Positions 11,326 through 34,866 of a DNA stretch of 37,622 nt are shown here, piece by piece. A program made the position numbers and the translations under genes. The notes beneath the pieces were generated by a model. That model searched no databases. It was not told the DNA's origin and saw only the letters and a list, made by a program, of their open reading frames with translations. The DNA comes from a virus, in IMG/VR virus record IMGVR_UViG_3300014325_000009, positions 1 through 37,622 of that record; one strand, 5' to 3'. How positions within the stretch are numbered: the first letter of the stretch is position 1; each line of letters begins with the position of its first letter.

Positions 11326-11562
11326 ATGAATACTTTGACTTATACTTCTTTAAGAGAAAATCTTGCTGATGCGCTAGAGCGCGCAGAAAAAGGGGAAACT
11401 ATTGAAATTACACGCAGGGGCCATCGCCCTGTTTTGCTTACCCCTAAAGCGATTCCTGAGGCCAAACCTGTTAAATTTGCTGATGAGGAAAGATTTAATG
11501 CCGCCCTAAAGCGCGTTCAAAAACTTCATGCCTTAACAATTAAGACCCTGGCTGACCGATGA
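11326..11562 (+). CDS. phd: Phd/YefM-family antitoxin
   Basis: This 78-aa protein has the N-terminal DNA-binding fold of Phd antitoxins (TYTSLRENLADALERAEKGE, then IEITRRGHRPVLLTPK). The C-terminal tail is flexible and helical (FNAALKRVQKLHALTIKTLADR) and would neutralise the toxin. The stop overlaps the doc start by 4 bp (ATGA), the usual coupled arrangement. The gene lies on the opposite strand to all neighbouring virion genes and has its own promoter and palindrome, so it is a cargo (moron) gene. In phage P1 the same pair stabilises the plasmid prophage. Confidence 0.85.
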   Translation: MNTLTYTSLRENLADALERAEKGETIEITRRGHRPVLLTPKAIPEAKPVKFADEERFNAALKRVQKLHALTIKTLADR

Positions 11563-11930
11563 ATGAAATAGTTTTTTTATCTGTCGATCAGGTTTGTCAC
11601 ATTCAAAAATCAACACTTCCTGGAGTGCCTGCTGGTAATGTCGGCTTAATTGAAGGAGCGGTTGACAGGATTTTGAATCAATACCATTACAATGGCGTGT
11701 CAGATATTTTTGAGCTTGCGGCCCTATATTTAGTGGCTATAGCAAAAGCTCACGCCTTTCCAGATGCTAATAAACGAACCGCGATCCAGTCCGCCTTGAT
11801 ATTTTTACAATTAAACAATGTGTTTATCCAAGAAACTGAGGAATTAGTAGAAATAACAGTCAGGGCGGCTGAGGGATCGGCTAGCTTAAAAGAAATCGCA
11901 GCTACTCTGATGAGGCTAGCTATTCCCTAA
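11559..11930 (+). CDS. doc: Doc toxin, Fic-fold kinase of EF-Tu
   Basis: This 123-aa protein (P1 Doc is 126 aa) carries the Fic-family loop HAFPDANKR at residues 65-73. Like Doc, it lacks the second Gly of the HPFxxGNGR AMPylator motif and has Ala-Asn-Lys-Arg. The family phosphorylates EF-Tu and stops translation until Phd blocks the site. The catalytic His65, Asp69, Asn71, Lys72 and Arg73 are all present, so the toxin should be active. Its 3' end overlaps by 4 bp, tail to tail, the minus-strand gene at 11927-12091. Confidence 0.88.
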   Translation: MNEIVFLSVDQVCHIQKSTLPGVPAGNVGLIEGAVDRILNQYHYNGVSDIFELAALYLVAIAKAHAFPDANKRTAIQSALIFLQLNNVFIQETEELVEITVRAAEGSASLKEIAATLMRLAIP

Positions 11931-29161: not shown

Positions 29162-29329
29162 ATGACAATTGAAACAAAAATAATTTGTGATTATTGCCAG
29201 AAAGAAATTAAATCGATTCAAGACATAGCTTTCACTGTGACTAGCATGATATGCGGGCTGAAATTTGAAATGCATTTTTGTAACTTTAAATGTTTGAAAG
29301 TTTGTTTTGATGAGAGGTTTAAGGCTTAA
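29162..29329 (+). CDS. 55-aa cysteine-rich protein, last gene of the early unit
   Basis: ATG 29162 lies 2 bp behind the previous stop. The protein reads MTIETKIICDYCQKEIKSIQ and later HFCNFKCLKVCFDE, with C-x-x-C near the start and two more cysteine pairs, likely one zinc site. It ends at 29329, just before the structured RNA. The plus unit therefore runs straight into that RNA. Confidence 0.65.
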   Translation: MTIETKIICDYCQKEIKSIQDIAFTVTSMICGLKFEMHFCNFKCLKVCFDERFKA

Positions 29330-29359
29330 GTAATTAATACATGATAATCGCGGCGTTGA

Positions 29360-29513
29360 TCCGATTGTCACAAGAACTCAACCAGCCATGGTTAATGGTT
29401 GAGAGGCCGTAGCACGTTGCCATAATGAGGCTTAATTGCCTGTAAGTGCTCTGCGAGGTCGGCAGTACAAGGGATCGGAGGCGGTGAAAGCCCGTCATCA
29501 ATTTGAAAACGGG
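29360..29513 (+). ncRNA. Structured RNA, HEARO/OMEGA-like (hypothesis), at the convergence of early and late units
   Basis: This 195-bp gap is richer in GC than its flanks and folds into nested stems on the plus strand. CTCAACCA/TGGTTGAG (29377-29384 with 29396-29403) is first. GGCC/GGTC (29405-29408 with 29457-29460, one G-U pair) and AGCAC/GTGCT (29411-29415 with 29446-29450) enclose AGGC/GCCT (29428-29431 with 29438-29441). TCCGAT/ATCGGA (29360-29365 with 29474-29479) closes the whole. GGC/GCC and CCCGT/ACGGG follow at the 3' side. This plan recalls HEARO guide RNAs of IscB elements, but no IscB gene is present. The RNA class is a hypothesis only. Confidence 0.45.
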
Positions 29514-29522
29514 ACCCGTTAC
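29508..29522 (-). terminator. Short hairpin with T-run after the 171-aa gene (possible late terminator)
   Basis: On the minus strand AACGG-GTC-CCGTT is followed by TTTTC, starting 3 bp beyond the stop of the 29525-30040 gene. It could end the leftward late transcript. The same bases take part in the plus-strand structure, so the two uses may compete. Confidence 0.35.
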
Positions 29523-29524
29523 AA

Positions 29525-30040
29525 TCAAAAAATATCGTCCTCCTCTTCATCTTCGTCAAAATCATCTTTCTTGGATTTTTCAGTCTTTACTAGCTTTGGC
29601 TTTTTGCAAGCATGCTTGTATAAGTCCAATGAGATTTTATCTATAAACATAGTCGATGCAATAAAGTCTATGGCTCGCTGAAGTAGGCCGATGTCATTCT
29701 CTATTTTTTCAAATGCTTTATAAATCTTGGCCTGGTCATCTAGAGCTATGCCCTCTTCTGCACTGTATTTATTTTTTTTAATGGCCAGAAGTGTTTCACA
29801 AGTTATTCCAAATGCGTTCATGATGTCATAGTCGGGTGTTTTTTTTCCTACATGAAGCTTAATCTTTTTTAAATCATCTCGGCCAGGTCTTTGGTTGTAA
29901 TTTTGGCCAATTTTATTTTTTCTCCATTCGGACTGTACAATGCTTACTTTTTTTTCTGCTGGCTTCCAGTCATCCAAGCTGACATAATCATCGGCGCATT
30001 CATTTTCATCATGTTCAAATTCATAGCTCCTGCTTTCCAT
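29525..30040 (-). CDS. 171-aa protein with SSB-like acidic tail
   Basis: This protein starts MESRSYEFEHDENECADDYV, with a charged middle (QNYNQRPGRDDLKKIKLHVG) and a helical core (about 75-145). The tail is DDFDEDEEEDDIF. The tail closely resembles the C-terminal tip of SSB proteins (acidic run ending Asp-Asp-Ile-Pro-Phe), which recruits repair and replication proteins. No OB fold is visible, so it may be a decoy or partner rather than an SSB. It has its own promoter and operator and lies beside the early unit. Confidence 0.65.
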   Translation of the reverse strand: MESRSYEFEHDENECADDYVSLDDWKPAEKKVSIVQSEWRKNKIGQNYNQRPGRDDLKKIKLHVGKKTPDYDIMNAFGITCETLLAIKKNKYSAEEGIALDDQAKIYKAFEKIENDIGLLQRAIDFIASTMFIDKISLDLYKHACKKPKLVKTEKSKKDDFDEDEEEDDIF

Positions 30041-33273: not shown

Positions 33274-34074
33274 TCAGGAAAATTCCCAAACTATTATCAA
33301 GCCACTACTGCCGTTGCCACCGGCTCGGTTAGTGGTTGTTCCGGCAACAGCCCCACCGCCGCCAGAGGCGTAATTGGTGGCATTATTACCCGCGGCCCCA
33401 CCTGAGGCGTTTATCAAAGCAACCCCTCCTCCGCCAATGGGTGAGGATGCCCCGGGGCCTGAGGCTAAAATTGCGGTGGTGCCATTTAGCATTAATCCTG
33501 CGCCACCTATGGCCCCATTTGCATTAACATCGCCGTTACTGCCAACTCCCCCGGCACCACCGGCTGCATCACCTACGGATGATGAGGCACCACCTATTGC
33601 ACCACCTACGCCACCGGTTGCTTGTAGCGATGAGGCACTAAAAGATGTCGTGCCACCCGTTGAACCAGGGTTGGCACCAGCAGTACCACCAGCACCGCCT
33701 CCGCCTACTGTGTACGTATAAGTTGAACTTGCCGAGGCCACATAAAGACGGGCATAACCTCCGGCACCGCCTCCGCCTCCCACAACAGAATTCGAGGCAA
33801 GACCGGTCTGTGCGCATCCAGCCCCACCACCACCGCCGCCCCAAACCTCAACCAAAATAGAGGTAACATTCGAGGGCTTATTATAGGTAGCGGCAGTCCC
33901 TGTAGTAAAAATTTGAAAACTCCTAACACCACCAGTAATTGTTATGTTCGTAGCAATGCCAGATGTTGGGGTTCCCAAAACAGGGGTTACAAATCCCGCT
34001 GATGTACTTCCTGCAAAATTACCTGTCCCTGTCTGGCCCGAAAGGTCAACATCTACCTGGTTTCTCGTAGCCAT
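33274..34074 (-). CDS. Glycine-rich adhesin, copy 2
   Basis: This 266-aa protein starts MATRNQVDVDLSGQTGTGNF. It has a Gly-rich body with runs such as VWGGGGGGAGC and GGGGGAGGYARLYVAS, and ends SSGLIIVWEFS. It is a diverged tandem duplicate of the upstream gene (34075-34866), sharing start, end and most motifs (SASSLQATGGVGGA, GPGASSPIGGGG). Glycine-rich sandwich domains of this kind form the receptor-binding tip of phage fibres (S16 gp38-type adhesins). The start follows the first copy's stop directly. Confidence 0.75.
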   Translation of the reverse strand: MATRNQVDVDLSGQTGTGNFAGSTSAGFVTPVLGTPTSGIATNITITGGVRSFQIFTTGTAATYNKPSNVTSILVEVWGGGGGGAGCAQTGLASNSVVGGGGGAGGYARLYVASASSTYTYTVGGGGAGGTAGANPGSTGGTTSFSASSLQATGGVGGAIGGASSSVGDAAGGAGGVGSNGDVNANGAIGGAGLMLNGTTAILASGPGASSPIGGGGVALINASGGAAGNNATNYASGGGGAVAGTTTNRAGGNGSSGLIIVWEFS

Positions 34075-34866
34075 TTAAGAAAATTCCCAAACTATGATTA
34101 ATCCACCACTGCCATTACCGCCCGCTCTGTTTGTTGAGGCACCTGAACAGGCCCCACCGCCGCCAGATGCGTAGTTAGTTGCATTGTTTCCTGCGCCCGC
34201 GGCATTAATCAATGAAACTCCGCCGCCTCCTATTGGTGACGATGCGCCAGGGCCAGATGCTAAAACCCCAGAGCCACCACTAAGTAGGACACCAACGCCA
34301 CCTATGGCACCGTTGGCATTCATATCCCCATTAGAGCCAACGCCTCCGGCCCCACCCGCACTTATGCCAACCGTGGTTGATGCGGCTCCAGGAGCACCAC
34401 CTACACCGCCCGTAGCTTGTAAAGATGAGGCGCTGAATGTAGTGGTGGTGCCCGTTGTTCCGGCATTATTGCCAGCCGCACCGCCAGCACCACCACCTCC
34501 AACTGTATAGGTATAAGTATTACTAGAAGCTGCCACATACAGTCTTGCATAACCTCCGGCACCACCGCCTCCCGCTACAATCGAGGTTCCGGCACCTCCC
34601 GCAGCAGTACCACCGCCACCGCCTCCACCGCCCCAAATTTCGACTAGGATTGATGTAACGTTGGCAGGTTTGGTATAAGTTGCGGCGGTCCCCGTTGTAA
34701 ATATCTGATAGCTTCTTACGCCACCCGTTGCAGTTAAGTTTGTGGCGACACCAGAAGTAGGTGTCCCAAGCAAAGGTGTGACTAAAGTTGGGCTTGTAGA
34801 GCCGACAAAACTACCTGTTCCGGTTTGGCCCGATAAACCGACATCAACTTGATTCCTTGTAGCCAT
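34075..34866 (-). CDS. Glycine-rich adhesin, copy 1
   Basis: This 263-aa protein starts MATRNQVDVGLSGQTGTGSF and then LLGTPTSGVATNLTATGGVR. It continues with EIWGGGGGGGGTAAGGAG, a Gly/Ala-rich body and SGGLIIVWEFS at the end. Layout and sequence match the downstream gene. The two copies differ most in the glycine-rich loops (for example AAGGAGTSIV against CAQTGLASNSV), as expected for surface loops under diversification. They may form hetero-oligomers or give alternative receptors. Confidence 0.75.
   Translation of the reverse strand: MATRNQVDVGLSGQTGTGSFVGSTSPTLVTPLLGTPTSGVATNLTATGGVRSYQIFTTGTAATYTKPANVTSILVEIWGGGGGGGGTAAGGAGTSIVAGGGGAGGYARLYVAASSNTYTYTVGGGGAGGAAGNNAGTTGTTTTFSASSLQATGGVGGAPGAASTTVGISAGGAGGVGSNGDMNANGAIGGVGVLLSGGSGVLASGPGASSPIGGGGVSLINAAGAGNNATNYASGGGGACSGASTNRAGGNGSGGLIIVWEFS

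What the first reader, a model, noticed from the sequence alone, without database searches (positions are those of the whole stretch)
29345..29522. Orphan HEARO/OMEGA-like structured RNA without a nuclease gene
This 195-bp gap between the convergent early and late units has no convincing gene, is GC-richer than its surroundings, and folds into nested stems. The stems are an 8-bp hairpin at 29377-29403, a branched unit at 29405-29460, and a 6-bp long-range closure, 29360-29365 with 29474-29479. A G-U pair favours the plus strand. The element plan and the GGAGGCGGTGAAAGCC stretch recall HEARO RNAs that guide IscB. No IscB, TnpB or Cas gene is in the genome. An orphan guide RNA in a phage could act in trans with a host nuclease, target a competitor or bind a host effector. 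The family link is from memory and the stems from reading by eye.
Basis: partly seen in the sequence, partly recalled or inferred. Interest (0 to 1): 0.8.

Follow-up and report, generated by a model that had tools for sequence, protein, structure and literature searches.

The report
New double-pseudoknot RNA in tRNA-carrying phages
The gap holds a real, previously uncatalogued phage RNA of about 130 bases, found in 20 uncultured phages and often placed right beside a tRNA gene; its fold is supported by matched base changes, it is not a HEARO guide RNA, and its function is unknown.

Summary
Window 29373-29500 (+) belongs to an RNA family of 20 distinct copies, all in uncultured virus contigs. 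I found it through a BLAST relative, three conserved-sequence scans and covariance models. 91% of cells pair, 95 cells change on both sides (shuffled mean 28), and sliding the partners by one base abolishes it. No member reaches an Rfam threshold, and no HEARO match appears even at E=10. No IscB, and no TnpB above cut-off, occurs in 22 member records. Eight of 20 copies lie within 7 nt of a tRNA gene on the same strand, and five of these start exactly at the tRNA 3' end. In the window the RNA follows a collapsed remnant of a second, tRNA-like RNA family. Neighbouring protein genes differ, and here only a convergent gene follows, so a cis-regulatory role is unlikely. Best reading: a trans-acting, tRNA-co-transcribed phage RNA. 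What it binds is unknown; a counter-defence or translation role is inference.

The parts
29373..29500 (+). whole conserved RNA element (hairpin - pseudoknot - pseudoknot - hairpin)
   Evidence: covariance models R1/R2: 111 bits, E 1.1e-23 and 109 bits, E 1e-23; 20 distinct members
29377..29403 (+). P1 hairpin, 29377-29384 with 29396-29403; its loop holds the palindrome CCATGG (29386-29391; CCUAGG or CCAUGG in most members)
   Evidence: 5 of 6 modelled pairs covary; coordinates
29405..29421 (+). P2, GGC 29405-29407 with GCC 29419-29421 (GGGUU/AACCC in other members)
   Evidence: covaries, with a 1-nt indel between the two sub-types
29411..29415 (+). P3 5' strand AGCAC, in the loop of P2
   Evidence: all 5 pairs covary, 96% of cells paired
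29446..29450 (+). P3 3' strand GTGCT, closing the first pseudoknot
29428..29441 (+). variable hairpin, AGGC 29428-29431 with GCCT 29438-29441; length differs or absent among members
   Evidence: sequence and alignment
29451..29465 (+). P4, CTGC 29451-29454 with GCAG 29462-29465
   Evidence: first pair switches C-G/G-C/A-U among members, the rest invariant
29457..29460 (+). P6 5' strand GGTC, in the loop of P4
   Evidence: 93% of cells paired; variants CGUC/GAUG, AGUC/GGCU, GAUC/GGUC, AGCU/GCUA
29473..29476 (+). P6 3' strand GATC, closing the second pseudoknot
29480..29496 (+). P5 hairpin, GGCGG 29480-29484 with CCGTC 29492-29496, loop TGAAAGC (contains a GNRA sequence: GAAA, GGAA, GAGA or GUAA in members)
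   Evidence: 4 of 5 pairs covary, 99% of cells paired
29343..29372 (+). collapsed remnant of a second, tRNA-like phage RNA (5' acceptor strand and start of the D-like arm joined to the 3' acceptor strand), directly 5' of the element
   Evidence: comparison with full copies in L005, L041, L079, L091, L094 and L125

Best explanation
Window 29373-29500 (+) encodes a discrete, trans-acting non-coding RNA of a family not in Rfam, carried as accessory cargo by P22-like podoviruses and some relatives. Shown by comparative sequence: the fold (P1 hairpin; P2/P3 pseudoknot; variable hairpin; P4/P6 pseudoknot; P5 hairpin with a GNRA-containing 7-nt loop), the sharp 5' boundary that coincides with the 3' CCA end of a tRNA gene in five members, and the same strand as neighbouring phage genes. 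Inferred: it is transcribed in the phage operon with the tRNA (here with the early genes ending at 29329), cut free by host tRNA-processing nucleases, and folds into a compact stable RNA that binds a conserved host or phage macromolecule. The likeliest ligand class is a factor of the tRNA, translation or RNA-based defence machinery, with the RNA acting as decoy, inhibitor or cofactor alongside the phage tRNAs; I put about 0.3 on that last step.
For: 20 distinct members; scans used only the 3' part of the RNA, yet the 5' hairpin and first pseudoknot were conserved too, and four members came from whole-record model search alone. Covariation 0.503 against shuffled 0.182; sliding by one base drops pairing from 91% to 33-45%. 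tRNA gene abutting the 5' end in L123, L126, L143, L144, L145; tRNA 6-7 nt downstream in L147, L156, L157. Window and L128 carry tRNA-like remnants at the same place. Downstream genes differ between members, and in the window the next gene is convergent, so the RNA is not a leader of one gene. No frame is open across the family and lengths vary 106-150 nt. Phage tRNAs can counter tRNA-cleaving defences (PMC13096335, read), which makes the inferred role plausible.
Against: No transcript has been seen; expression and processing are inferred from position. Seven of 20 members show no tRNA or tRNA-like remnant near the element in the DNA held, so tRNA processing cannot be the only route. All members come from uncultured viral contigs of unknown host. 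A direct repeat of the AGG(G)AUCGG core and invariant unpaired bases would also fit a ribozyme or protein-binding scaffold. Nothing identifies the ligand.
Confidence: 0.65

Rival explanations
1. Orphan HEARO/OMEGA guide RNA working in trans with a host IscB or TnpB nuclease.
For: Similar size, ornate structure, no adjacent protein gene required if the nuclease is supplied by the host.
Against: No RF02033 match at E<=10; no IscB in 22 member records and no TnpB zinc-ribbon match above cut-off; the 5' flank is a tRNA 3' end in five members; flanks match other fetched loci only over short stretches, or over longer ones that are shared tRNA sequence or adjacent copies.
Confidence: 0.03
2. A self-cleaving ribozyme or other catalytic RNA, for example one that trims the 3' end of the upstream tRNA transcript.
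For: Two pseudoknots, invariant unpaired bases, a fixed 5' boundary at tRNA 3' ends, and a weak sub-threshold resemblance to twister-sister (GCAAGG and GGUGNAAGCCC; 20.8 bits, cut-off 34).
Against: The twister-sister match ends before the strand that closes P1; several members have no tRNA upstream; no conserved dinucleotide stands out as a cleavage site.
Confidence: 0.12
3. A cis-acting element: leader, riboswitch, terminator or 3' stabiliser of a phage operon.
For: In many members a co-directional small ORF starts 3-140 nt downstream; in the window the RNA ends the early operon.
Against: Downstream genes are not the same family across members; in the window, only a convergent gene follows; no terminator-like stem with a T run was found at the element; a tRNA follows directly in L147, L156 and L157.
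Confidence: 0.12
4. A small selfish or mobile RNA-coding element that inserts at tRNA 3' ends.
For: Same 5' junction at tRNA-Asn, -Tyr, -Pro and an undetermined tRNA; found in different gene neighbourhoods and in 7 of 43 virus records reached through protein relatives; in L068 it overlaps the end of a helicase gene.
Against: No conserved target duplication, terminal repeats or mobility gene seen; ordinary recombination between phage accessory regions explains the scatter.
Confidence: 0.08

Closest known systems
Ocean-VII RNA (Rfam RF03092, 41-nt sRNA motif)
   Same: Unpaired stretch AGUAUCAGGGAUCAGAG against AGUAAUAGGGAUCGGAG here, followed by a hairpin with a GAA..AG loop and AC
   Different: Only 18.2, 14.1, 11.8 and 11.7 bits (cut-off 53.5, E 0.044 at best); the Rfam model holds no pseudoknots or 5' part. 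A lead for a distant superfamily, not membership
T4 species 1 and species 2 RNAs (rnaC, rnaD)
   Same: Small stable phage RNAs encoded next to phage tRNA genes
   Different: No sequence resemblance by inspection, and model R2 finds nothing in the T4 tRNA region
HEARO / IscB OMEGA RNA (RF02033)
   Same: Size class and ornate fold
   Different: No model match, no IscB, no guide position
Twister-sister ribozyme (RF02681)
   Same: GCAAGG and a GGUGNAAGCCC hairpin loop in the same order
   Different: Below cut-off; the 3' closing strand is absent

Membership tests
HEARO / IscB OMEGA RNA (RF02033) | match to the covariance model | tested here: not met
   no match at E<=10 in the window region or in 20 cut-out members; none at gathering threshold in the whole window
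HEARO / IscB OMEGA RNA (RF02033) | encoded 5' of an IscB/HEARO nuclease gene (65% of HEARO 5' UTRs match RF02033; PMC9755519) | tested here: not met
   NF040563 finds nothing in 22 member records; several records are fragments
HEARO / IscB OMEGA RNA (RF02033) | free 5' guide next to the scaffold | tested here: inconclusive
   the 5' flank is a tRNA 3' end in five members; host DNA unknown, so no guide target could be sought there
TnpB OMEGA RNA | overlaps or follows a tnpB gene | tested here: not met
   PF07282: no match over cut-off in 22 records; one sub-threshold 13.8-bit match in G090
Ocean-VII (RF03092) | score at or above 53.5 bits | tested here: not met
   best 18.2 bits
Twister-sister ribozyme (RF02681) | score at or above 34 bits with P1 closed around the cleavage strand | tested here: not met
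   best 20.8 bits, truncated at the 3' side
Twister-sister ribozyme (RF02681) | self-cleavage | not testable with these tools
   needs an in-vitro assay
T4 species 1/2 RNA | sequence or model similarity | tested here: not met
   R2 finds nothing in L148; sequences differ by inspection
tRNA / tmRNA | ARAGORN or Rfam tRNA/tmRNA call at the element | tested here: not met
   none in the window

The most novel reading that the evidence does not exclude
A new class of phage RNA effector: a compact double-pseudoknot RNA that travels with phage tRNAs and disables or diverts a host tRNA-targeting or RNA-based defence, or is itself catalytic, possibly related to the unexplained Ocean-VII RNA.
Probability: 0.3. 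Interest if true: 0.85.

Novelty: new variant of a known kind. Interest (0 to 1): 0.62.

Why it matters
Phage non-coding RNAs are rarely found because gene callers skip them, and few have a proven fold. This one has a well-supported fold with two pseudoknots, a sharp 5' boundary, recurrent coupling to phage tRNA genes and no Rfam family. It gives a defined ~130-nt molecule that can be made, probed and used as bait in the laboratory, and it may give context to the Ocean-VII motif.

Tried and rejected
HEARO/OMEGA: rejected on Rfam, nuclease and guide-position tests. Fold stability as evidence: rejected, z about 0 for the exact element because of the pseudoknots. T4 rnaC/rnaD homology: rejected. 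Homology with the GC-rich gap blocks of L008 and L009, which also contain GGTGAAA: rejected, R2 finds nothing there. BLAST of members against isolated phages gave only short sub-significant matches, and against plasmids nothing. An Ocean-VII consensus hit in phage f2b1 (E 8) is treated as chance, and R2 finds nothing there. Model search of 369 gammaproteobacterial and 398 Pseudomonadota genomes found nothing; the host is unknown, so this says little. The one genome contigs pattern scan gave only hits without the rest of the element. Three isolated phages with related portal proteins lack it.

Full report
THE OBSERVATION. The window is a 37.6-kb virus record with a 123-bp end repeat and P22-type head genes (portal, major head protein, head closure; Sf6-like small terminase). 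The gap between the last early ORF (stop 29329, +) and the convergent 171-aa ORF (29525-30040, -) is 195 bp, GC-richer than its surroundings. Single-sequence folding is not convincing: z -1.57 on the plus strand and -0.14 on the minus strand for 29345-29522, and -0.14 for the exact element. Rfam has nothing there, at gathering thresholds or at E<=10.

FINDING RELATIVES. BLAST against isolated phages and plasmids found nothing. Relatives of three window proteins (RecE, the 171-aa protein, the VRR-NUC protein) gave 118 viral loci. One of them, L068, held a 75%-identical copy (E 7e-18) in the same orientation but at the 3' end of a helicase gene. A pattern from the shared 3' part, GGATCGGAGNNGGTGNAAGCC, and two related patterns recovered further copies from viral contigs. 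These patterns cover only the 3' part, yet the copies also share AGAACU, the first hairpin and the first pseudoknot, so the rest of the element is independent confirmation. A covariance model (R1) then found four more copies in whole viral records (L154-L157). After merging duplicates there are 20 distinct members.

THE FOLD. On the 20-row alignment (A5) the structure P1, P2/P3 pseudoknot, P4/P6 pseudoknot, P5 gives 91.3% standard pairs, 19 pairs with changes on both sides, 95 doubly changed cells (shuffled mean 27.6) and a covariation score of 0.503 (shuffled 0.182); no shuffle of 500 reached any of these, and sliding partners by 1-3 columns drops pairing to 32-45%. P3 is the clearest: AGCAC/GUGCU, GCUAC/GUAGC, UCUAC/GUAGA, GUUGC/GCAAC, GCUGC/GCAGC and GCUAG/CUAGC all occur. 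P6 is short but has CGUC/GAUG, AGUC/GGCU, GAUC/GGUC and AGCU/GCUA. The alignment was fitted to a model with P1, P2, P4 and P5, so counts for those lean towards the structure; P3 and P6 were not in the model and are the unbiased part. The P5 loop contains GAAA, GGAA, GAGA or GUAA, a GNRA sequence. The P1 loop holds CCUAGG or CCAUGG in most members, which could allow loop-loop pairing between two molecules (inference).

WHERE IT SITS. Five members begin at the very 3' end of a tRNA gene (L123 Tyr; L126, anticodon loop undetermined; L143 and L144 Asn; L145 Pro), and three end 6-7 nt before one (L147 Gln, L156 and L157 Pro), always on the same strand. L149, L152 and L154 have a tRNA within 1 kb. 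In the window and in L128 the element follows a remnant of another RNA described below. Protein neighbours vary: in one set of phages it lies between the small terminase and the large terminase or portal genes, in the window's own set among small early genes, and in L068 at the helicase gene. It is present in 7 of the 43 virus records reached through protein relatives (several are fragments). It looks like cargo in accessory regions.

THE SECOND RNA. Full copies in L005, L041, L079, L091, L094 and L125 have an 8-bp acceptor-like stem, two linker bases, a D-like arm with loop GACAGUGA, a variable region in place of the anticodon arm, a T-like arm with loop UGCAAUU and a 3' ACC-type end. On six copies all 108 cells pair and 10 of 18 pairs covary. 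ARAGORN calls no tRNA in L125 and Rfam at gathering thresholds gave no match at these places in L005 or L125. So the main RNA stands behind a tRNA-like 3' end in the window too.

WHAT IT IS NOT. It is not HEARO: no RF02033 match at E<=10 in 20 tightly cut members, no IscB in 22 member records, no TnpB zinc ribbon above cut-off. Published HEARO RNAs sit 5' of the nuclease gene and carry a 5' spacer (PMC9755519, read); here that position is often a tRNA. It is not a gene leader in general, because downstream genes differ and the window has only a convergent gene. It is not the T4 species 1 or 2 RNA by sequence. Two sub-threshold Rfam matches are leads only: Ocean-VII, whose unpaired core differs from this family's at three of 17 bases, and twister-sister, which shares two short motifs.

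HOW IT MOST LIKELY WORKS. Shown: conserved fold, boundaries, strand, tRNA coupling. Inferred: co-transcription with the tRNA or early operon, release by tRNA-processing nucleases, and action in trans as a folded RNA on a conserved partner. Phage tRNAs have been shown or proposed to offset tRNA-cleaving defences (PMC13096335), so a partner in translation or defence is a reasonable first guess, at about 0.3. A ribozyme (0.12) and a cis role (0.12) remain open.

LIMITS. All members come from uncultured viral contigs of unknown host; no expression data were available; sampling favours members that keep the 3' core; model E-values are rough. Of the calls, 18, 60, 61, 103 and 114 returned errors.

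Noticed in passing
window 29343-29372; L005 6852-7005 +, L041 1463-1622 +, L079 5089-5175 -, L091 5993-6158 -, L094 3253-3371 +, L125 168-319 -, L155 2702-2772 -: A second phage RNA family, tRNA-like (8-bp acceptor stem, D-like arm, T-like arm with UGCAAUU loop, variable region in place of the anticodon arm); all 108 cells pair in six copies. The window has only a collapsed remnant.
   Followed up: partly
window 11326-11930 (+): A Phd antitoxin and Fic/Doc gene pair on the strand opposite the surrounding head genes, as in plasmid-like prophages.
   Followed up: no
L003 11836-12596, L002 13660-14423, L006 14025-14797: Relatives carry a ParA-type gene (Pfam match for L003; L002 near-identical) and TTGATG-type repeats at the position of this gap, which suggests a plasmid-like prophage stage.
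   Followed up: partly
L009 15449-15506 and matches in L002, L003, L006, L010, L014, L027, L041: A ~58-nt conserved block (AGCTGATCACCCATGACGGTGAAACAGTACTCGGG...) in the same phage group, unrelated to the main RNA by model search.
   Followed up: no
L008 14723-14840 and matches in L006, L012, L014, L097: Another conserved GC-rich block near the 171-aa ORF.
   Followed up: no
L009 14834-15331 (+): A small phage protein with an RNA polymerase alpha C-terminal domain match (E 2.9e-14).
   Followed up: no
L126 3528-3614 (-): A phage tRNA that ARAGORN reports as tRNA-??? with a four-base anticodon 'taga', directly before the main RNA.
   Followed up: no
L006 16394-16460; L125 3893-3937: Rfam matches int-alpA and abiF in related phages.
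   Followed up: no
window 33274-34866 (-): Two adjacent glycine-rich tail-like proteins that look like a recent tandem duplication.
   Followed up: no
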